Of a stretch of DNA of 38,252 bases, positions 15,894 to 30,900 are shown piece after piece. Position numbers and translations under genes: made by a program. Numbering within the stretch: position 1 is the stretch's first letter; every line of letters begins with the position of its first letter. Origin of the DNA: a virus; the IMG/VR virus record IMGVR_UViG_3300037993_000084, positions 1 through 38,252 of that record; one strand, written 5' to 3'. The notes below the pieces were generated by a model. That model was not told the DNA's origin, searched no databases, and was given only the letters and a program-made list of their open reading frames with translations.

Positions 15894-15905
15894 TGGATGA
15901 GATTC

Positions 15906-17411
15906 ATGGCTCCTCACTACATCCCACCTGGCGTTACGATCACTGAGGCAGTACAGCCTCAGATTGTTCCTCTCGTCACATCCACCGCAGAACTCGTCAT
16001 CGTCGGTCAAGCCGGAGGCGTCCAGACACGAACGGACCAGATCGTCGTGGGCAAAGCAGGTACGGAACAGGCGCTTCCCTACCTAGCGCAAGTCCCGCAT
16101 ACCAAACTCGTTGGCGAAAAACCGATCAAAACGGTCATCAACACCTTCCACCCGTCAGAACCGTCCGGTTCCAAAGGCAAAGGCTACAAAGAAGGCGAAT
16201 CCTGGGAAATCAAATCCGAAAAGTTCGTGAACAAGGAAGGGGAACACCCGATCCCGGAGGGCACCGTGGTCAGCATCACCTACACCTTCATCGCGGGCAA
16301 CTACTACAACCCGATCCGGCTCTTCGATGCTTCCGAAGTCCAGTCGCGGTTCGGTGAACCCATCGTCGGCGGCAAAGTCGCCTCTCCGCTATCCCTAGCG
16401 GCAACCAAGGCATTTGAAAACGGAGCACAGACAGTCATCTGTCAGCCGTTGTTCAAGACCTCATCCGGCTCGCTCGAATACAACCAGCTTGGCTACATCG
16501 TCAACGGTGAAGCCCTGACCGAAGAAGAAGCCGAAGAACCGACGCATTGGGCCACGACCCTACAGGCTCTCGGTACCGTCGAAGTCATCGACATCCTCGT
16601 TCCGGTCAGCGGCGTCGAAGAAGTTCTCGACAAGGTGCTCCAACTAGAGCAGGACCGGGCGTACGAACAGCAGTACGTCTTTGGGGTCTACGGGACCGAC
16701 ACAACGGTCACTGCGAAAACCGCTGCCGAAATCCGCACACTGGCGAAAGCTCTTGCAGGCTACGCGAGCGGTGCGTACTCACAGCAGAACATCCTCATCA
16801 ATACCAGCAGCTTCAACGTCCGCGCTTCGCAGAGCGAAGAAATCCAGGTCGGCGGTCAGTACGTGGCCGCAGCCATCGCCGGTAAAATGGCTGGCTCACC
16901 GGCCTCACAGTCTCTCACCCGTCAGCCGATTGGCGGCTTCCGCGCTGTCAACGATCACCGCAACTCGTCTGAAAAGAACCTCGACGCCGAAAACGGCCTC
17001 ATGGTCGTGGAGGAAATCAAGGGCGGATCCATCCGCATCCGCCACGGCATCACCATCGACACCGAAGGTGGCGCTGCCCGCTCTGAGGTATCCGTGGTCA
17101 GGGCCAAGTTCAACGTCATCGAATCAATCCGTGAAACCCTCGAAAATCAGGTCATCGGCAAGATCATCGCTGACTCGAACTCTCCGGTCATCGTGCGCTC
17201 AGCCATCAGCGCTGTGCTAGCGGTGCTCGAAAGGACTCGCCAGATCGTCGGCTACAACATTCCGGAAGTCAAAGTGGCTTCTCTAGAACCGACGACTCTC
17301 GTCGCATCGTTCAGCTACCGTCCAGCCTTCACCGTCAACTACATCGACATCGTGTTCCAGCTTGATCTCTCAAGCCAGAGCGTGACCGTGTTCGAAGAAC
17401 AAAAAGTCTGA
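15906..17411 (+). CDS. Tail sheath protein
   Basis: 501 residues from ATG 15906, chosen because sheath proteins start like MAPHYIPPGVTITE; ATG 15897 would add MRF. The opening Y-x-P-G-V is the typical contractile sheath start. The C-terminal part (SVVRAKFNVIESIRETLENQ; then RQIVGYN and a strand-rich end) fits the conserved sheath C-terminal domain that links neighbouring subunits. It is followed 21 bases later by the tube gene, the invariant order for contractile tails. The sheath contracts to drive the tube through the host envelope. Confidence 0.85.
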   Translation: MAPHYIPPGVTITEAVQPQIVPLVTSTAELVIVGQAGGVQTRTDQIVVGKAGTEQALPYLAQVPHTKLVGEKPIKTVINTFHPSEPSGSKGKGYKEGESWEIKSEKFVNKEGEHPIPEGTVVSITYTFIAGNYYNPIRLFDASEVQSRFGEPIVGGKVASPLSLAATKAFENGAQTVICQPLFKTSSGSLEYNQLGYIVNGEALTEEEAEEPTHWATTLQALGTVEVIDILVPVSGVEEVLDKVLQLEQDRAYEQQYVFGVYGTDTTVTAKTAAEIRTLAKALAGYASGAYSQQNILINTSSFNVRASQSEEIQVGGQYVAAAIAGKMAGSPASQSLTRQPIGGFRAVNDHRNSSEKNLDAENGLMVVEEIKGGSIRIRHGITIDTEGGAARSEVSVVRAKFNVIESIRETLENQVIGKIIADSNSPVIVRSAISAVLAVLERTRQIVGYNIPEVKVASLEPTTLVASFSYRPAFTVNYIDIVFQLDLSSQSVTVFEEQKV

Positions 17412-22248: not shown

Positions 22249-23081
22249 TCCTTCCGCCTATCGCATGGGAGAGCCTACCGGACTTCACACTGGCTGACGC
22301 CACCAGTGTTAGCGCCAGCATTGTGCCTGCCGTTGACCAGGGCTATGACATCGAAGGAGTACGACGTACTCCGGCTCGGACAGAGGAAATCCTCTCCGCC
22401 TGCAACGGTGTACTCTGCACCCGTCAGCACCGCATGCGCTTCTTCATCAACTCAGTGGAAGTGGCGACGGGTATCTCGGCTCGCTTCGGACAGGGCCGAC
22501 GTACCCGTGACATGTACCCACAGGCGTTTGTTATGCCTCGCTACAAAGTCAACGCGCAGTCGCTCACTCAGGAAGACTATGGCCTCATGTGTGAGTTCGT
22601 TCACGCGCACCACCAGGAAGCGGTCGGCAACGGTAACACTGTGCAGTTGAGCGTGCGGGAGGGATGGAACCCTTACACCAACCACGAAAACCTCGAACCG
22701 CAGCTTGAGAGCGCGGGTATGGCAGGCTACCACAAACCGATTGAGGCAGCCGGGTTCGTGTTGGAGATGCCCCGCACACATGAACGATTCGTATACACGC
22801 CCGAGTTCGAATTCGAATTCAGCGTGATGCAGTCATACATCGGCGTCTTCTCCGGACAAGTCTTCACCTACGACAACGTGCAGGAAAGCATCATGGAAAT
22901 CCTTGAAGCACAGGAACGCCCGTTCAGTCAGGCTCCCCAGGCGAAACCTGCGCCCAAGGTCATTACGCCCGAAGAGGAAACTCAGCTACAGAAAGAACGT
23001 CACGAAAAGGCGTTCGGCCCTGGTCCTGGCATCAATAGTGGTCCTCTGTTCACTGACCAACCACCGAAACCGACGCGCTGA
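22245..23081 (+). CDS. Baseplate/tail protein, unknown type
   Basis: 278 residues with mixed secondary structure (GVLCTRQHRMRFFINSVEVAT; YTPEFEFEFSVMQSYIGVF). The disordered, Pro/Glu-rich C-terminus ends in EKAFGPGPGIN, a motif repeated at the C-terminus of the following hub protein (NKAFGPGIGLAN). It begins by ATGA overlap and ends by TGATG overlap with the hub gene. Probably a hub-linked baseplate protein. Confidence 0.5.
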   Translation: MILPPIAWESLPDFTLADATSVSASIVPAVDQGYDIEGVRRTPARTEEILSACNGVLCTRQHRMRFFINSVEVATGISARFGQGRRTRDMYPQAFVMPRYKVNAQSLTQEDYGLMCEFVHAHHQEAVGNGNTVQLSVREGWNPYTNHENLEPQLESAGMAGYHKPIEAAGFVLEMPRTHERFVYTPEFEFEFSVMQSYIGVFSGQVFTYDNVQESIMEILEAQERPFSQAPQAKPAPKVITPEEETQLQKERHEKAFGPGPGINSGPLFTDQPPKPTR

Positions 23082-26000
23082 TGGCAGGCAACTCAGACAT
23101 CCAGAGACTCGTCTATCCTCCGAAGGTGTGGGTCTTCGTCAAGACCGCCAACGGTGAAACGCTAGACCTCACGGACTACGTGATCAGCGGGGAAGTCGTT
23201 CGTCGCATCGGGGCTGCGTCCACGGCTAGCCTAGTGCTGCGTAACCCCAACCACTTGTTCACTGCGTTCAGCAAAAAATACGCGACACTGCACCCGATGG
23301 ATCCGATCACGATCTACATGGAGCGCTTCCCTGGTCGTCACGTACAGGTGTTCACTGGCTACCTGGACACAACACCATACTTGCAGTTGATCCCTGGCCC
23401 GGTCACCATCGAAGCTACCTGCACACTCAAGCGGCTCGAATTCAACTGGTTCCAGCTAGCCCAGCAGTACACCCTCTCATTCTTCGAACACTTCGGATGG
23501 AAGCTCATCGGAGAAGGGGAAGCGGGAGGCATCATCCCTGTCAACCAGGGTCCGTACGCCAACAAACAGTTCGAAGAAGAGGCCAAAAAGAAGTGGGCAC
23601 AGGAACTCGCGGAAGGCAAACGCAGCCAATCCGAAGTCGAACAGAAAGAAAAGTCACTCAAAGAAGAAGAAAAGGAAGCCGAAGACCGCGCGAAGAAGGC
23701 TACCGCCGCTCAGGGTGCCTCGCCCAATACCAACACACCCAACCCATTCTCGAACCCGCTCGAAGCTGGCAACGGCACAGGCGGCAAGCCACAGGTCATC
23801 GGTGACGACGGGTCATTCAAGAAGCTCCTGTGGGCCATCCTCTACTACATGGCCGACTGGAAAGACGAGAACATCTACATCGAGGAAATCCCACCGGGCG
23901 TGCCGGAACTGATCGCCGCACTGTGGGCTGACTTCAACTCAGGCGAACGCCAGGAAGGACTCAAGGACTTGAAGGCGTTCTGGTCTGCTATCATCGGCGT
24001 GGGTGCCAAGGGCAGCGGTGGCGGGGCAGGCAACCCAGCCAACAAAGGAGGCAGCACCAAAACGGGTGACCTCACCGGCCTCAGTGAAATCATCGAAACG
24101 ATGTCACAGACGGCTGAAAAATACGGCCTGCCTGCGAAGTTCGTCATCACCACATCACTGTGTGAGTGCAGCTTCAACCAGGCGGAGATTACCTCCAAGA
24201 ACTCAGACGGTGCTACTGGCTGGTTCCAGTTCACATCGAGCGAACCGTATCCTGGCATCAAAGTGAACTACCCAAGCGATGCCGAAGACACGGGCCTAGC
24301 CACGGCTGCCTTCTGTCAGGCCGCTGTGACCAAGGGTAACGCACTCGCCGGTGGTAAAGGACTGCCGCCTGAAAGCGAGTGGCAGCATTGGGCCGAGGAA
24401 ACTCAGGTCGCTGGTAACGGAGCTTACGACCCAAGCTGGTCCCGCTGCGAGGCTCAGGCCGAAGGGTACCTACAGCAGTACAAACCGAAGAAGGCCGAAG
24501 GCAAGGAAGGTGGCTCTACCAGCGAACGAGGCAAGGTGGGTGAAGGTGAAACCAACAAGACAAGCTCATCCAGCAAAACACGCATCAAGGCGATGGAAGA
24601 AGAGGCCGACACCATTGACTCCTTGAAGTACCCATACTCCTACGGCGGTGGTCACGCTAGCGCGGGTCGCCCAAGCATCGGTCCGGAACATGAGAACGGC
24701 GAAGGCCCGATGGTCCTTGGCTTCGACTGCTCAGGCTCCGTGGGCGCGGTGCTCGCTGCGGGAGGCTTCGTGCCTGAAAACAGTGCGATCCCCGCTTCGG
24801 GTGGGTTCAGTGGACTCAACATTCCTGGCTGGTCGGCAGGTGAATCCACCAGCAGCCCTAGCGTCAACGTCTTCTTCAACGAAACCCACGCCTGGATGAC
24901 CATCAACGGTCGGTACTTTAGCACAGGTTGGAACGACAACCCGAAGAGCGGGGCAGGATGGGGCACTACCAACCACGCAGAACAGCCAGAACCTCGCGAC
25001 AGCTACACCGTGATGCACCTATCAACTGCGTCACTGGAACAGACATACACGGGTCACAAGCCTCCTACTCTCACAGGTGAACCAGGCAGCCCTGCCGAAA
25101 AGCTCGTCGGTGAAACCGAATCTTCGAACGTCATGGGCACGGCCACTGCCGCTTCCTTCCTGTCACAGATCGCCGCCCCGAACGCCGAAGAAAGGTTGCT
25201 AGCCGACGCCATCGGTGGACAGCGAGCGCTCATGAACACGACGCCGGTGCTCGACCTAGTGGAACAGGTCTGCCAGTCATCGCTCCGCAGCTTCATGTCA
25301 CTTCCGAACGGGGACTTCTACGCCTTCTACCCGGACTACTTCGGAGAATTCGGTCACCACGAACCGTATTGGGCCATCAAAAACATCGAGGTCCAGTCGG
25401 GCACAGTGGAACTCACAGACAGCAACCTCATCACCCACTACTTCGCCGTGGGCGATGTGTCATGGCCGGGTACCGTCACCTTCATCAACGACCTGTACGC
25501 AGGTGCCATGACTGTGTATGAAGCCTTCCAGCCTGGGATCCTACTCCACAACGAAAAGCCTGCCACCAAGGGCAACGAACCAGAAAAAGGGAGGGCCAAC
25601 GGCAACACCAACGCAGCCATCGCCTTCCTCAAGCGCTATGGTGCGCGTCCTGCGAAACACGAATACAACATGGTGTTCTCCGCGCTGTTCGATCAGTTGC
25701 TTGCGTACCAGCAGTTCCTCCTCGGCTGGTCCCGACAGTTCCAGAGTTCGTTCCACTTCACATTCATGCCTGAGTTGTTCCCTGGCGGCAAGGTCGCTTT
25801 CCCGGAGACTGGCATCAAGATGTACGTGGAAGAAGTCACGCACGCCTGGGACATCACGGACACCGGGTACGAGACATCTGCCGTCCTCTCCGCTCCGTCC
25901 ATCTTCCGCAACACGGAAAACACAGAGGCCATCAACGAACTGCCTGAAAACATGGTCGAGGCATTGATCGAGCCGCTACGCAACCAGATCGGCAAACCAA

Positions 26001-26116
26001 CCAAACCGACCGAACCTCCTCACACCCCAACCTCCCCCATCATCAAAACGAGGGAAGAAGCCCGCAACAAGGCGTTCGGTCCGGGAATTGGACTAGCGAA
26101 CACATTGGTCGAATGA
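23081..26116 (+). CDS. Baseplate hub protein with inserted transglycosylase-like and NlpC/P60-like domains
   Basis: 1011 residues. Residues 1-145 (PPKVWVFVKTANGETLDLTD; VFTGYLDTT) look like the N-terminal domain of gp27/gpD-type hubs. A charged linker (160-210) follows. At about 330-470 a lysozyme/SLT-like domain has the pattern ITTSLCECSFN (Glu362 as candidate acid) and GATGWFQFTSSEPY (380-390). At about 515-650 an NlpC/P60-like domain has YPYSYGGGHA, GFDCSGSVG (Cys550) and ETHAWMTI (His603). From about 700 to 960 the sequence returns to a hub-like beta domain (DFYAFYPDYFGEFG; VELTDSNLI). So two cell-wall hydrolases are placed inside one hub. It would cut glycan and peptide bonds during infection, a fit for a thick or mycolate-type envelope. 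Begins by TGATG overlap. Confidence 0.75.
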   Translation: MAGNSDIQRLVYPPKVWVFVKTANGETLDLTDYVISGEVVRRIGAASTASLVLRNPNHLFTAFSKKYATLHPMDPITIYMERFPGRHVQVFTGYLDTTPYLQLIPGPVTIEATCTLKRLEFNWFQLAQQYTLSFFEHFGWKLIGEGEAGGIIPVNQGPYANKQFEEEAKKKWAQELAEGKRSQSEVEQKEKSLKEEEKEAEDRAKKATAAQGASPNTNTPNPFSNPLEAGNGTGGKPQVIGDDGSFKKLLWAILYYMADWKDENIYIEEIPPGVPELIAALWADFNSGERQEGLKDLKAFWSAIIGVGAKGSGGGAGNPANKGGSTKTGDLTGLSEIIETMSQTAEKYGLPAKFVITTSLCECSFNQAEITSKNSDGATGWFQFTSSEPYPGIKVNYPSDAEDTGLATAAFCQAAVTKGNALAGGKGLPPESEWQHWAEETQVAGNGAYDPSWSRCEAQAEGYLQQYKPKKAEGKEGGSTSERGKVGEGETNKTSSSSKTRIKAMEEEADTIDSLKYPYSYGGGHASAGRPSIGPEHENGEGPMVLGFDCSGSVGAVLAAGGFVPENSAIPASGGFSGLNIPGWSAGESTSSPSVNVFFNETHAWMTINGRYFSTGWNDNPKSGAGWGTTNHAEQPEPRDSYTVMHLSTASLEQTYTGHKPPTLTGEPGSPAEKLVGETESSNVMGTATAASFLSQIAAPNAEERLLADAIGGQRALMNTTPVLDLVEQVCQSSLRSFMSLPNGDFYAFYPDYFGEFGHHEPYWAIKNIEVQSGTVELTDSNLITHYFAVGDVSWPGTVTFINDLYAGAMTVYEAFQPGILLHNEKPATKGNEPEKGRANGNTNAAIAFLKRYGARPAKHEYNMVFSALFDQLLAYQQFLLGWSRQFQSSFHFTFMPELFPGGKVAFPETGIKMYVEEVTHAWDITDTGYETSAVLSAPSIFRNTENTEAINELPENMVEALIEPLRNQIGKPTKPTEPPHTPTSPIIKTREEARNKAFGPGIGLANTLVE

Positions 26117-26117
26117 C

Positions 26118-26444
26118 ATGGCACCCATCCAGAACATGCACAGAGTGAACAAGAAGGGGGCTAAGATCCTCACGGTGGAACCTGCTACGCAGACCATCCA
26201 TGCAAGCCTGGGCGCAGGCCAGGTCGTGCCCGTCAACATGTATACTTACACGCCGGTTGTCCGCTGGCCGAAAGTGGGAGAGACATGGTGGCTACGAGAA
26301 GAGAACGGATCGTGGTTCCTTGACAGCGTTCAGGAGCAGCAGGCAGAAACCTTCCCCGACTATGCACCAGACGGAGCGTATGCGGAAGGCGCTGTGGTAA
26401 AATTTGAAGGGAAGCATTTCTCACTCGGAGAGATAATCGACTGA
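26118..26444 (+). CDS. Small beta-rich baseplate protein (OB-fold-like)
   Basis: 108 residues: ILTVEPATQTIHASL, then VPVNMYTYTPVVRWPKVGETWWLREENGSW. These are alternating strands with the P-x-x-G-E-x-W pattern seen in OB-fold parts of gp5/gpV-like spike or hub adaptor proteins. It is immediately after the hub and ends by TGATG overlap with the next gene. It may join hub and spike. The fold call is tentative. Confidence 0.5.
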   Translation: MAPIQNMHRVNKKGAKILTVEPATQTIHASLGAGQVVPVNMYTYTPVVRWPKVGETWWLREENGSWFLDSVQEQQAETFPDYAPDGAYAEGAVVKFEGKHFSLGEIID

Positions 26445-27310
26445 TGCCCAAAGAACTACCTATCCCTGGACCCCCACCCAACGAACCGTGGTCACTGTTC
26501 AAAGTAGTCCTAGTGCGACCCGGAGATGCGGTCATCTCTGCCTCTTCGGGGCGCATCCTACAGAACAAGAACAGCTACCTCACCGAAGTCCCTAATGGGC
26601 TGCGCGTGCCATGGTTTCCTACCGCCTTCGCAGGCAGCTTCGAAAACGTATGGAACAAAGAAACTAGCGAAGAGGTCACGAATAGGCTCGAACAGATTTG
26701 CACCATTGTCAATGACCTCCGCGCATGTGTCATGGCCTACAACATGGTCGAAAAAAAGGAAGAAGTCGATCCCGAAGCTCACTTCCATGTTCGCACGGGC
26801 GAGCACCTGGATGCCCTACACGGGCCGGGTACCGCTGCGGCATTCGCGGATCGCATGGACCTCACCAAGACCTTTCCTGGTACACAGGCGGCGGTCGCAG
26901 AACGCATCCACAAGAACGGAGCCACCGTGGTCGAAACCGTCTGGACAAAGCAGGGTAAGCGGATCGCTGCTCTTAGGCTCCATCTCACCAAGGAGAGAGC
27001 GCATTATGACCGCCTCGAAGTCGAGCCTGAGTACCGAGGCAAGGGCTTCTACTCAGCGCTGATCCGTAGGCCGTCGTGGTGGAGGGAACTTGGAGTCAAG
27101 ATCATCACCGCCCAGCCAGAAAACGAACGTTCTGAGCACGCGCTAGCGCTGGGCGGACTCCACTGGCAGGACTTTGAAGGCGAGCCTGTCTTTGGCGCAC
27201 GGCTTGACCAGAGAGACAGAATGGACGACTATCGCGAGTGGCTAGCGACCGGCAAGGATCCCGATCAGGAACCAGAGTGGCGTCGAGAACTGCGCCTTCC
27301 AACCATGTAA
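26444..27310 (+). CDS. Baseplate-operon protein with GNAT acetyltransferase-like domain
   Basis: 288 residues. Residues 1-110 (VVLVRPGDAVISASSGRIL; WNKETSEEVTNRLEQICTIV) are likely structural. Residues about 110-155 have His/Ala-rich helices. From about 160-250 the pattern is that of GNAT enzymes: strands ETVWTKQGKRIAALRLHL, then YDRLEVEPEYRGKGFYSALI. V-x-P-x-x-R-G-x-G is the acetyl-CoA pyrophosphate-binding motif A, with Arg198 and Gly199/Gly201. After it come GVKIITAQPENERS and ALALGGLHWQDF (motif B-like). It begins by TGATG overlap with the OB-like gene and is followed by the gp25-like gene. A GNAT domain inside the baseplate block is unusual. Confidence 0.65.
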   Translation: MPKELPIPGPPPNEPWSLFKVVLVRPGDAVISASSGRILQNKNSYLTEVPNGLRVPWFPTAFAGSFENVWNKETSEEVTNRLEQICTIVNDLRACVMAYNMVEKKEEVDPEAHFHVRTGEHLDALHGPGTAAAFADRMDLTKTFPGTQAAVAERIHKNGATVVETVWTKQGKRIAALRLHLTKERAHYDRLEVEPEYRGKGFYSALIRRPSWWRELGVKIITAQPENERSEHALALGGLHWQDFEGEPVFGARLDQRDRMDDYREWLATGKDPDQEPEWRRELRLPTM

Positions 27311-27316
27311 TAGACG

Positions 27317-27775
27317 ATGAGCTTTTCGTTGAAGATAGAACACGGCGACCTGGCCCTCAACGGCACGGAACTAGCTAAGGTCGAAGGGGCCGACAAGCTA
27401 CAGCAGGATCTTTCTGTCGCCATCCTGACGCCGCTGGGCTTCGATGAACTACACCCGCTGTTCGGGTCCATCCTGGTCGAAAACCTCATCGACAACGGCA
27501 TCGTAGACATCATCGGGACGCAGAACTTCCGACGTGCAGCCACCCTCGTCAATGCCGAGCTACGCCGCCTCTGCCGCAATTACCAGGAACAGCAGATCAA
27601 CCGCAACCAGAGCGATGTGATCCGCTTCGGTCGCCACACGCTGACCCCGGATGAGATTCTGGTATCCGTCAAGAACGTCGCTTTCAAGCAGGCCGAAGAC
27701 CATCTCATCTGCGAACTCTCCCTCGAAATCGGCACCGAAACGGTGTCAATCCCCGTTCCGATCCCTAATAGCTGA
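27317..27775 (+). CDS. Baseplate wedge protein, gp25/W-like
   Basis: 152 residues. GDLALNGTELAKVEGADKL, then LQQDLSVAILTPLGFDELHP and LFGSILVENLIDN, is the diagnostic opening of the GPW/gp25 family (baseplate wedge joined to the sheath). C-terminal strands (LISVSVKNVAF-like and TVSIPVPIP) fit the family length of 130-150. It starts after TAATAGACG without a clear ribosome binding site and ends by TGATG overlap with the J-like gene, the conserved order in contractile tails. Confidence 0.8.
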   Translation: MSFSLKIEHGDLALNGTELAKVEGADKLQQDLSVAILTPLGFDELHPLFGSILVENLIDNGIVDIIGTQNFRRAATLVNAELRRLCRNYQEQQINRNQSDVIRFGRHTLTPDEILVSVKNVAFKQAEDHLICELSLEIGTETVSIPVPIPNS

Positions 27776-30477
27776 TGCCCGTACGTAGCCAACTCCAAAT
27801 CGCAGAACAGATGGTCGCGCAGATCCGTCTGCTTGAACCTTCTGTCTCAGCCGAAGTAGGCACCCCGGAGCGCTTGATCCTCGACACCGTGTCGGGAGCT
27901 ATCTCCGAAGACTCCATCGACCTCGTTGGTCTACAGCAAGCCCTCAACGTAGACACCAAGTACGGCGTCAACCTCACCAACTTCCTCAGCATCTTCGGCT
28001 TCGCGAGACAGGAAGCGACCAAGGCCACCGGCTACGTCGAATTCACCGTGAGCAGTCCTGGCACTCGCACCGTTCTGATCCCGGAAGGGACGCTCGTCAA
28101 GTCTAGCGAAGCGACCGAACTTGAAGGTCTGGTGCCGGAATTCGCGACTCTCGCCTCAGCTTACATCAGACCCGGTGAAACCACCACGGGTCCGGTGCCT
28201 GTCGAATGTACCCGCCCTGGTGCGTTCGGCAACGTAGCGGCGAACAAAATCACGGTGTTCACGACGCCAGAACTCGGTCCGCTCCTCGGCGTCACGGCGG
28301 TCACCAACCCAACTCCGACCACCCACGGCACCGAACAGGAGAACGACAACAGCCTCAAGACCCGATTCAAGAACACGGTGTTCAGGAACATGTCGGGTAC
28401 CGAAGACCAGTTCCTCGCCCTCTCGGTAGCTACCTCCTTCACCACCAAGGCCAACGTCGTCGGTCCTGTCTCTACGTACCAAGAGTACGTGCAGGTACCG
28501 CAGAACGAAGAACACCCGCTTACTGGCGATGACACTACCGCGATCCGCTACGGCGGAGAAGGCAGCGCCGCCTACGTAGGTTTCCCTGCTCCCATCGTAG
28601 TCCGAGGCAACACGGTGGAAGGCTCATTCATCCTGACCATCAAAGACACAACCGGAGTCACACCCGGACAGGCTGTCGTGGTCTACGAAGAAGGCGACAA
28701 CCCTCGTCCGAGCACTACAACCACAGTCGAAGAAGTTGTCTCGACCACCGAAATCAAACTCGCGGCGAAAGCCAAAGCCACAGTGAACGATGGATGGGTT
28801 ACCATCGGCACGACCTCTGACACACCGTACATCAACAGGTGGACCAGCGGCCTCTCCACCAACCCGTACGCCAAGGAAGTATTCCCGGAACTTCCGGTGT
28901 TCATCTCTACGGCTGCGGCTGGACTCGGCAAACGGTTCTTCCGCGAGGGCGCAGACTTCGTGTTCAACTTCCCACCGAAGCTCGCCGGGGATACCTACCG
29001 TGCGATGCTCGATGGCACAGGCAACGACCCTCGCGTGGGCGAAGGATCGAAACAGCCGAACGTGACCTTCATCAATGTGTACGTCGGCAGCGAACCACCG
29101 GCAGAAGTGCTAGCTCCTGGTACCGTGGCGCTGCTCGAATACTCATACACGTCTAGGGCTTCCCGCAACAACCCGGAACACAATGTCACGAACGCGGTCG
29201 ATGTGTTCATCGATGGTCAGAACGTACAGCAGACCTCCACAGTGTTCACTGTCCCACTGTCCCCGACCGAATTCGCGTTTGTCGATGAACCCGTGAGCAA
29301 GTTCTACTACGAGAACTACCGCCGTGCCGGTGAGCCAGCCACCCGTCCGGTCGAGGGTGACATCCTAACTCAGCTATTCAACCAGCCGGTGCTAGGGATC
29401 CCGCCACAGATCACCATCGAGGAAGACGTGTTCTACTTGGGCGTTCACTACTGGCTGGTGAAGGATGTCTCGTCACTCTCTGGCACCATCCGAGCACGCG
29501 ACGGCATCGAGTGGAGCGCGTACATCAACGGTGACAAAAAAGGCGCACTCGGTCGCCCGAACCCTGGCAAAGAACTTGCCTACAGCGGCAAGAAGTTCGC
29601 GGAACTCGAAGCATCGAAAGCCGGTGTCCCGCAGCTTATCGACATCGAAACCTACACCTACGACAAGAACATACCTGACTTGCAGGTTGCCCTCGAAGGT
29701 GCGAAACAGGTCACCACGGATGTCCTCGCCCACAGCGCTCGCAAACGCTACTTCAAGCTCGACATCACGGTGGTCTACTCAGCTACCGCGTCGGTGACAG
29801 CCGTCAACGAAAACATCCAGAAAGCCATCTCTCGATTCCTATCCAACCAATACTTCGGAGCAGTCGTCCGCCTCTCGGATCTGTTGCAACAGATCCACGG
29901 AGTTGCCGGTGTCGAAAACGTCCGCTGGTCCAACGATGTTCCTCACACGCGCGACCTTATCCGGGTCTACGAGACTGACATCGAAGGCGCTCCGCTACGC
30001 GGCGTGTTCACTGACCGGATCCAGTACGGCGGCGGAGGTAGCAAAGCAATCGATACCCTCTACGTCGTCGGCAACCCAACCGAAGGCGAGTTCGCTCTGA
30101 AATACGGAGGAGCAGAACCATCACCAATCGTACACGTTGCATCCTTTACTGCCGCCTCCCTTGAAACCGCGATCAACGGTGGATGGCTGCCGGGTGGATG
30201 GACGGCCACAGTCGAAGAAGACATCCGCTCAACCGTTGGTGTGCTGTCTCCGATCCGTTCCTTCCGCATCACCTACAGCAAAACCGAAAAACTGGCCGAG
30301 CCAGTCACGATCTACAACCCGGAAAGCCCGTTGCAGGGTGGTGAATATGTCTACGACTTCGACTTCTACCTCCACGACGACGAGCTACCCGCACTACCCA
30401 CTGGCACACAGAAAGGCGACACAGTACCCGGATTGATCATCCGTGCCCGCGCACAGAACGTCTTTGAGAAGGCTTGA
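27775..30477 (+). CDS. Baseplate J-like wedge protein
   Basis: 900 residues directly after the gp25-like gene. It starts with the J-family pattern (EQMVAQIRLLEPSVSAEVG; ISEDSIDLVGLQQALNVD). It then has the conserved N-terminal beta region (VEFTVSSPGTRTVLIPEGT, and ECTRPGAFGNVAANKI, close to the usual A-G-x-x-G-N-V motif). The middle, about 200-560, is a long beta-rich insertion compared with P2 gpJ (about 300 aa). The C-terminal part (TVVYSATASVTAVNENIQKAI, LSDLLQQIHGVAGVENV) is again classic J: the x-I-x-x-V-x-G-V-x-x-V motif. It forms the wedge ring around the hub. Confidence 0.85.
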   Translation: MPVRSQLQIAEQMVAQIRLLEPSVSAEVGTPERLILDTVSGAISEDSIDLVGLQQALNVDTKYGVNLTNFLSIFGFARQEATKATGYVEFTVSSPGTRTVLIPEGTLVKSSEATELEGLVPEFATLASAYIRPGETTTGPVPVECTRPGAFGNVAANKITVFTTPELGPLLGVTAVTNPTPTTHGTEQENDNSLKTRFKNTVFRNMSGTEDQFLALSVATSFTTKANVVGPVSTYQEYVQVPQNEEHPLTGDDTTAIRYGGEGSAAYVGFPAPIVVRGNTVEGSFILTIKDTTGVTPGQAVVVYEEGDNPRPSTTTTVEEVVSTTEIKLAAKAKATVNDGWVTIGTTSDTPYINRWTSGLSTNPYAKEVFPELPVFISTAAAGLGKRFFREGADFVFNFPPKLAGDTYRAMLDGTGNDPRVGEGSKQPNVTFINVYVGSEPPAEVLAPGTVALLEYSYTSRASRNNPEHNVTNAVDVFIDGQNVQQTSTVFTVPLSPTEFAFVDEPVSKFYYENYRRAGEPATRPVEGDILTQLFNQPVLGIPPQITIEEDVFYLGVHYWLVKDVSSLSGTIRARDGIEWSAYINGDKKGALGRPNPGKELAYSGKKFAELEASKAGVPQLIDIETYTYDKNIPDLQVALEGAKQVTTDVLAHSARKRYFKLDITVVYSATASVTAVNENIQKAISRFLSNQYFGAVVRLSDLLQQIHGVAGVENVRWSNDVPHTRDLIRVYETDIEGAPLRGVFTDRIQYGGGGSKAIDTLYVVGNPTEGEFALKYGGAEPSPIVHVASFTAASLETAINGGWLPGGWTATVEEDIRSTVGVLSPIRSFRITYSKTEKLAEPVTIYNPESPLQGGEYVYDFDFYLHDDELPALPTGTQKGDTVPGLIIRARAQNVFEKA

Positions 30478-30483
30478 TCTGCC

Positions 30484-30900
30484 ATGAGCGAACGAGCTAT
30501 TCTAACGGCATACCGACGAGGAGAGACTGTCGCCTCTATGGTCAATCGACTTGGCACAAGTCGGTACGCAATATACAAGGCGATCAATCGTCATGATGTA
30601 TCAAAACGCAAAGCAGCAAAGCAACCCGATTGGCCGGAGTCTGGTCACGGAAAATGGGTTGATAAACAAGGCTATGTCACAGTTTGGTATCGGGGTAAGC
30701 CAAGACGAGAGCACCGTTGCGTCATGGAAGTAGCCCTCGGTAGGAGACTTCTCAAGTCAGAGACAGTGCATCATGTCAATGGGGATCGATCAGACAATCG
30801 CATCGAGAACCTACAACTACGACAAGGACATCATGGCCCTGGCGTGGTAATGTGCTGTGCAGAGTGCGGTTCGCATAACCTTCGTCCAACGGAGGCGTGA
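30484..30900 (+). CDS. HNH homing endonuclease 6 with N-terminal HTH
   Basis: 138 residues. The first 40 residues (AYRRGETVASMVNRLGTSRY, then AIYKAINRH) form a homeodomain-like helix-turn-helix that should read the target site. The HNH_3-type core follows: HRCVMEVALGRRLL, ETVHHVNGDRSDNRIENLQL. The end has CCAEC, a possible zinc site. It sits between the J-like gene and the next baseplate gene; its stop lies 2 bases before ATG 30903, and GGAGG for that gene is inside it. Confidence 0.85.
   Translation: MSERAILTAYRRGETVASMVNRLGTSRYAIYKAINRHDVSKRKAAKQPDWPESGHGKWVDKQGYVTVWYRGKPRREHRCVMEVALGRRLLKSETVHHVNGDRSDNRIENLQLRQGHHGPGVVMCCAECGSHNLRPTEA

What the first reader, a model, noticed from the sequence alone, without database searches (positions are those of the whole stretch)
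26444..27310. GNAT acetyltransferase-like domain fused to a baseplate-operon protein
Between the OB-like spike/hub gene and the gp25-like wedge gene, a 288-residue protein carries an unmistakable motif A (VEPEYRGKGFYSALI) with flanking strands of the GNAT fold. The N-terminal 110 residues look structural. GNAT domains modify amines with acyl groups. In a virion-gene position this could be an enzyme carried in the tail and acting on host surface, toxin or virion proteins, or a dead fold reused as a structural module. I know of no standard baseplate component of this kind.
Basis: partly seen in the sequence, partly recalled or inferred. Interest (0 to 1): 0.8.

Follow-up and report, generated by a model that had tools for sequence, protein, structure and literature searches.

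The report
Acetyltransferase cargo on phage tail spike
A contractile-tailed soil phage carries an acetyltransferase-fold protein in the exchangeable slot at the end of its tail-spike gene, where its relatives put host-binding fibre tips or wall-cutting enzymes, so the phage may bring a protein-modifying enzyme on its tail.

Summary
The ORF at 26444-27310 (288 aa) is real and its GNAT domain is supported: Pfam Acetyltransf_1 above its curated cut-off, profile-profile comparison far above shuffles, and Foldseek of a weak model returning almost only acetyltransferases. It lies in a contractile-phage baseplate operon of a clade related to mycobacteriophage cluster C and Rhodococcus phage E3. In about 45 relatives the OB-like spike domain continues into a 'PGDxxI' linker and then a variable tip. 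In the window and one relative (L010) the spike ORF stops early. The linker opens the next ORF, followed by a conserved heptad coiled coil and the GNAT domain. L010 and L081 are about 77% identical in DNA up to the end of the spike core and again from the gp25-like gene. Between them L010 has the GNAT and L081 another tip, so this is an exchangeable cargo cassette. Between window and L010 the GNAT ORF is the best conserved protein of the operon, at near-saturated synonymous divergence. Best reading: a spike-associated GNAT enzyme cargo, analogous to evolved VgrG. Homology, module swap and constraint are shown. Virion location is inferred. Catalysis, delivery and target are untested; the P-loop's last position is aromatic and the usual Tyr acid is missing.

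The parts
23081..26116 (+). tail hub / virion structural protein, 1011 aa
   Evidence: phrog_2810 E 5e-65; homologues in Rhodococcus phage E3, Finch, cluster C mycobacteriophages
26118..26444 (+). short spike ORF, 108 aa: OB-like spike core (residues 1-74) plus a new C-terminal tail resembling CBM5/12 instead of the usual linker and tip
   Evidence: profile of spike cores across loci; tail of the L010 orthologue hits CBM_5_12 E 0.0024, below cut-off; the window's own tail does not hit
26442..26446 (+). TGATG stop/start overlap joining spike ORF and GNAT ORF (translational coupling inferred)
   Evidence: sequence
26444..27310 (+). spike-linker + coiled coil + GNAT cargo protein, 288 aa
26507..26623 (+). 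linker 'RPGDAVISASSGRILQNK...' (residues 22-60), which in other phages follows the spike core in the same polypeptide
   Evidence: L081 residues 81-111, profile E 3e-6; general '[PE]G[DQE]xxI' pattern after the core in ~45 relatives; 79% identical to L010, 44% to L081
26666..26752 (+). predicted coiled coil (residues 75-103)
   Evidence: 7 of 7 a/d positions hydrophobic in both window and L010 while the other positions are 38% identical
26768..27208 (+). GNAT domain (residues 109-255)
   Evidence: Pfam PF00583; hhalign; AF2 topology and Foldseek; 74-87% identical to L010
27035..27052 (+). acetyl-CoA P-loop RGKGFY (residues 198-203); sixth position Tyr instead of Gly/Ala
   Evidence: sequence; comparison with reference GNATs
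27317..27775 (+). gp25-like baseplate wedge protein; its start is the right boundary of the exchangeable cassette in relatives
   Evidence: phrog_2669 E 7e-20; DNA homology L010-L081 resumes here
27775..30477 (+). baseplate J (gp6-like) wedge protein
   Evidence: PF04865 E 1e-21

Best explanation
The ORF is the detached C-terminal half of the tail-spike gene and carries a GNAT N-acyltransferase as its cargo. The spike core is made from the short upstream ORF. The second ORF is translated by coupling at TGATG, docks at the baseplate/spike through the conserved linker, oligomerises through the coiled coil, and presents GNAT heads. During contraction the spike assembly pushes the enzyme through the wall, and it uses host acyl-CoA to modify a host amine (most likely on a host protein such as a component of the transcription or translation machinery). 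It therefore works like an 'evolved' VgrG spike, with an enzyme in the exchangeable tip position. Shown: GNAT homology, linker homology, cassette exchange, strong conservation. Inferred: presence in the particle, docking, oligomer. Speculative: catalysis, entry into the cytoplasm, target.
For: GNAT. Linker shared with the fused spike of L081 and the general spike architecture in ~45 relatives. DNA homology between L010 and L081 stops at the end of the spike core and resumes at the gp25 start; GNAT cassette in one, other tip in the other (proteins). Heptad register conserved. GNAT ORF 70% identical and dN 0.23 against 36-59% and dN 0.34-0.70 for the neighbours, pS 0.60-0.74 throughout. A second phage (L017) has an unfused GNAT in the same slot and another among its tail-fibre genes. 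Precedents: Rac, a phiKMV-like GNAT that leads to cleavage of host RNAP alpha (PMC7552054); polyvalent virion proteins with GNATs (PMC5512222); evolved VgrG (PMC6899460).
Against: No proteomics. P-loop position 6 is Tyr (Phe in both L017 GNATs) where the reference GNATs carry Gly/Ala, and the alpha-4 Tyr acid is missing. Acetyl-CoA is absent outside cells, and phage spikes are not generally known to reach the cytoplasm. The AF2 models are weak (pLDDT 41 and 55). Only one close relative exists. L017's slot GNAT has no linker, so virion attachment is not universal.
Confidence: 0.42

Rival explanations
1. Virion-attached but non-catalytic: the GNAT fold is a binding head (receptor-binding tip or baseplate scaffold) on the linker and coiled coil, like the other tips in this slot.
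For: Slot neighbours are mostly adhesive or fibre domains (Collar, Gly-rich, Mtd_N, Gp10_C, TIG). P-loop position 6 is aromatic and the catalytic Tyr is lost.
Against: Receptor-binding tips usually diverge fastest; here the GNAT ORF is the slowest-changing of the operon with its P-loop RGxG kept. Some slot occupants are enzymes (CHAP).
Confidence: 0.25
2. Late-expressed enzyme that acts in the producing cell: it acetylates virion proteins (or a host protein late in infection) and rides in the operon; the linker places it at the spike during assembly.
For: Acyl-CoA is available in the producing cell; the gene is in the structural operon. L017 has stand-alone GNATs between tail genes without a linker.
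Against: The linker and coiled coil in window and L010 argue for a structural place rather than a free enzyme. No candidate substrate restricted to GNAT-bearing phages was seen, though this was not searched systematically.
Confidence: 0.18
3. Free accessory (moron-like) gene that landed in the tip slot and captured a spike linker by chance; no virion role.
For: Presence in few phages (3 of 33 slots); exchangeable cassette.
Against: The linker is kept at 79% identity between window and L010 and the cassette replaces the spike tip itself, so without it the spike would lack the usual tip.
Confidence: 0.1

Closest known systems
Evolved VgrG spikes of type VI secretion (e.g. VgrG2b, PMC6899460)
   Same: Contractile-machine spike with an exchangeable C-terminal enzymatic domain
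   Different: Here in a phage baseplate, on a separate coupled ORF, and the cargo is a CoA-dependent GNAT; delivery not shown
GNATs in polyvalent phage proteins and solo GNATs beside late genes of cluster C mycobacteriophages (Alice gp113; Iyer et al. 2017, PMC5512222)
   Same: GNAT fold, late structural-gene neighbourhood, related phage clade
   Different: Alice gp113 lies upstream of the sheath gene and has its own family (phrog_3082); no spike linker, no cassette at the spike
Rac of phiKMV-like phages (PMC7552054)
   Same: Phage GNAT proposed to act on host RNA polymerase alpha
   Different: Not described there as spike cargo (abstract read only)
Spike proteins of Rhodococcus phage E3 (gp120) and Bixzunavirus (Colt gp129)
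   Same: Same position, same spike core followed by linker
   Different: Tips are fibre-like; core, linker and tip in one polypeptide; no GNAT

Membership tests
GNAT superfamily | Sequence profile match (Pfam Acetyltransf_1) | tested here: met
   21.8 bits against cut-off 20.7; the 70% identical L010 protein just below (19.5)
GNAT superfamily | alpha1-alpha2-beta2-4-alpha3-beta5-alpha4-beta6-7 fold | tested here: inconclusive
   Order of elements and Foldseek hits are GNAT (prob ~1.0, E 4e-4 PDB, 3e-5 viral) but pLDDT 55 and TM about 0.3-0.6
GNAT superfamily | P-loop Q/R-x-x-G-x-G/A | tested here: inconclusive
   RGKGFY: first four positions met, sixth is Tyr; Phe in both L017 GNATs
GNAT superfamily | Acetyl-CoA binding and acyl transfer | not testable with these tools
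   Needs purified protein; common alpha-4 Tyr acid absent
Spike tip cargo of this phage clade | Located between spike core and gp25-like gene | tested here: met
Spike tip cargo of this phage clade | Preceded by the PGDxxI linker | tested here: met
Spike tip cargo of this phage clade | Linker in the same polypeptide as the spike core | tested here: not met
   Stop codon and TGATG restart between core and linker in the window; short gap in L010
Evolved VgrG | Enzyme delivered by the spike into a target cell | not testable with these tools
   No virion proteomics or translocation data
Polyvalent-protein GNAT / Alice gp113 family | Close sequence relationship | tested here: not met
   Alice gp113 is phrog_3082; window GNAT matches phrog_1249 and phrog_21214 weakly instead; profile of tail GNATs finds gp113 only at E 0.003

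The most novel reading that the evidence does not exclude
A contractile phage delivers an active acyltransferase on its spike at the first moment of infection, as an exchangeable tip cassette: phages use 'evolved spikes' with enzymes that need a cytoplasmic cofactor, to reprogramme or disarm the host before phage genes are expressed.
Probability: 0.3. Interest if true: 0.85.

Novelty: new variant of a known kind. Interest (0 to 1): 0.58.

Why it matters
Tips of phage spikes are thought of as needles, adhesins or wall hydrolases. A conserved CoA-dependent enzyme fold swapped into this position would link phage tails directly to effector-loaded spikes of secretion systems, and would make the question 'do phage tails deliver enzymes into the cytoplasm?' testable in a defined gene with a natural cargo-swapped sister (L010 against L081).

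Tried and rejected
Full-length AF2 with two sequences: pLDDT 41, not used. Single-protein scans of viral contigs for the GNAT, J and hub proteins: nothing. GNAT searches in phages and plasmids: nothing or chance-level hits. Genome-contig scan with the window/L010 alignment: nothing. YRGxGFYxAL motif scan: only L010's contig and an unrelated chance ORF. Search of 399 genomes of the Solirubrobacter class: one chance hit in a methyltransferase-like ORF. PDB sequence hits to SNF8 judged spurious. T7 gp13 was considered as a virion GNAT precedent; no profile support. NlpC/P60 and SLT-like inserts in the hub: suggested by eye, no Pfam support. A recent transfer as the cause of the high GNAT conservation was rejected because synonymous sites are near saturation.

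Full report
OBSERVATION. The ORF 26444-27310 encodes 288 aa. Pfam Acetyltransf_1 matches residues 159-232 at 21.8 bits, above the curated cut-off of 20.7; it is the only match of that family in the contig. The motif LEVEPEYRGKGFYSALIRRPSWWRELGVK is real and lies where a GNAT has beta4, P-loop and alpha3. HHalign of the window and its relative L010 against a set of 19 bacterial GNATs gives a score of 36.3, against at most 14.4 in 20 column-shuffled controls. A domain model from three sequences is weak (pLDDT 55) but has the GNAT order of elements, and Foldseek returns nearly only acetyltransferases: PDB E 4e-4 at best with probability ~1.0, viral library E 3e-5. TM-scores are low (mostly 0.3-0.5), so the model supports the fold class but not site geometry.

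SETTING. The operon is a contractile-tail baseplate: sheath-like 15897-17411 (below Pfam's cut-off), hub 23081 (phrog_2810), a 108-aa spike ORF 26118, the GNAT ORF, gp25-like 27317 (phrog_2669), J 27775 (PF04865), then tail genes 30897 and 32894. Named relatives are Rhodococcus phages E3 and Finch, Gordonia phages, and cluster C mycobacteriophages. IMG/VR holds closer relatives. One relative lies in a contig of Candidatus Solirubrobacter pratensis, which hints at an actinobacterial host; this is weak evidence.

THE ORF IS THE SECOND HALF OF A SPLIT SPIKE GENE. A profile of the spike core run over all loci shows one architecture in about 45 relatives: core, then within about 10-25 residues a linker with the pattern [PE]G[DQE]xxI or a close variant, then a variable tip. 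In the window and L010 only, the spike ORF ends in a short tail that resembles a carbohydrate-binding module (L010: CBM_5_12 E 0.0024, below cut-off). The linker 'RPGDAVISASSGRILQNK' is found instead within residues 22-60 of the GNAT ORF, which starts in a TGATG overlap in the window and a few bases downstream in L010. The best match to this linker is residues 81-111 of L081's fused spike (profile E 3e-6). Residues 75-103 keep a heptad register: 7 of 7 core positions are hydrophobic in both window and L010, though the remaining positions of the helix are 38% identical. That is the anatomy of a tip attached to the spike/baseplate, followed by a GNAT head. Physical attachment remains inferred.

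THE SLOT IS A CARGO SLOT. In 33 distinct loci the region between hub and gp25 holds Collar, glycine-rich, Mtd_N, Gp10_C, TIG and CHAP domains; GNATs are in three of them (the window is counted there through its copy L001). The cleanest comparison is L010 with L081: they pair together in the J and hub trees with the window outside, and are 68-83% identical in flanking proteins. Their DNA is about 77% identical up to the end of the spike core (L010 5531) and again from the gp25 start (L010 6548); the stretch between gives no alignment: spike tail plus GNAT ORF in L010, linker plus a different tip in L081. So the cassette was exchanged, or lost in L081. The third GNAT, in L017, is a free-standing 169-aa ORF without linker; the same phage has another GNAT among its tail-fibre genes (PF00583 29.9 bits). 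All four tail-module proteins (window, L010, L017 twice) share an aromatic residue at P-loop position 6 and a Trp in alpha3. Whether they are one family is likely but not proven (L017 slot protein against window/L010: hhalign prob 34%).

CONSTRAINT. Between window and L010, synonymous sites are near saturation in every baseplate gene (pS 0.60-0.74), so a recent transfer cannot explain the similarity. Yet the GNAT ORF is the most conserved protein (70%, dN 0.23) compared with gp25 59%, J 59%, hub 51%, spike 47% and others down to 36%. Residues 105-158 are 87% and motif A 88% identical, whereas the helix region is 37%. This is unlike a variable receptor-binding head. It argues for a constrained function of the GNAT fold, though two sequences cannot separate catalysis from a constrained binding role.

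CATALYTIC STATE. The RGxG of the P-loop is intact, but the sixth position, Gly or Ala in nearly all of the reference GNATs, is Tyr, and the alpha4 Tyr often used as general acid is absent (LALGG). Neither is proof of inactivity: from general knowledge, GNATs vary at both sites. Open.

MECHANISM. Most likely a spike-associated acyltransferase cargo, by analogy with evolved VgrGs (PMC6899460), acting on a host protein. Precedents for GNATs used by phages against host proteins are Rac (PMC7552054) and GNAT-bearing polyvalent proteins; Iyer et al. also noted a solo GNAT (Alice gp113) beside late genes in cluster C phages (PMC5512222). Alice gp113 lies upstream of the sheath gene and belongs to another family. 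The steps that remain unshown are presence in particles, CoA binding, entry into the cytoplasm and the target. The paper searches made here turned up no paper describing a GNAT as a spike or baseplate cargo; the library is partial and the searches were few.

VERDICT. New variant of known kinds (phage virion-associated GNATs; enzyme-tipped spikes).

Noticed in passing
L017:14774-15181 (+): A second GNAT (PF00583, 29.9 bits) lies between tail-fibre genes of the same phage that carries a stand-alone GNAT in the spike slot (L017:5996-6505).
   Followed up: partly
window 26340-26441: The spike ORF's short tail 'PDGAYAEGAVVKFEGKHFSL' resembles a CBM5/12 chitin-type carbohydrate-binding module (L010 orthologue E 0.0024); seen only where the split-spike GNAT cassette is present.
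   Followed up: partly
window 30484-30900: HNH endonuclease gene between J and the next tail gene; Rhodococcus phage Finch has one at the same site (L003:9486-9923), and L081 has an HNH-like ORF elsewhere in the operon (1930-2466).
   Followed up: no
IMG/VR record of L032 (search handle G018), 64-78 kb: Giant open frames (1105-1380 aa) with GNAT matches, four of them in the 1380-aa frame, far from the baseplate genes; they look like polyvalent proteins.
   Followed up: no
L113 and L128: Large multidomain ORFs (at least 1052 and 647 aa) with weak GNAT matches in the records of relatives L009 and L021; likely polyvalent proteins.
   Followed up: no
window 24068-25150 within the hub gene: A 'FDCSGSV...HAW' pattern that looks like NlpC/P60 and an SLT-like stretch before it, not supported by Pfam.
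   Followed up: partly
window 26777-26821 (residues 112-126 of the GNAT ORF): 'AHFHVRTGEHLDALH' is fully conserved between window and L010, with four histidines; it could be a substrate or metal site.
   Followed up: no
window 27775-30477: The J protein is 900 aa with several insertions relative to the ~580-610 aa J of E3 and mycobacteriophages; the closest IMG/VR relatives have a similar length.
   Followed up: no
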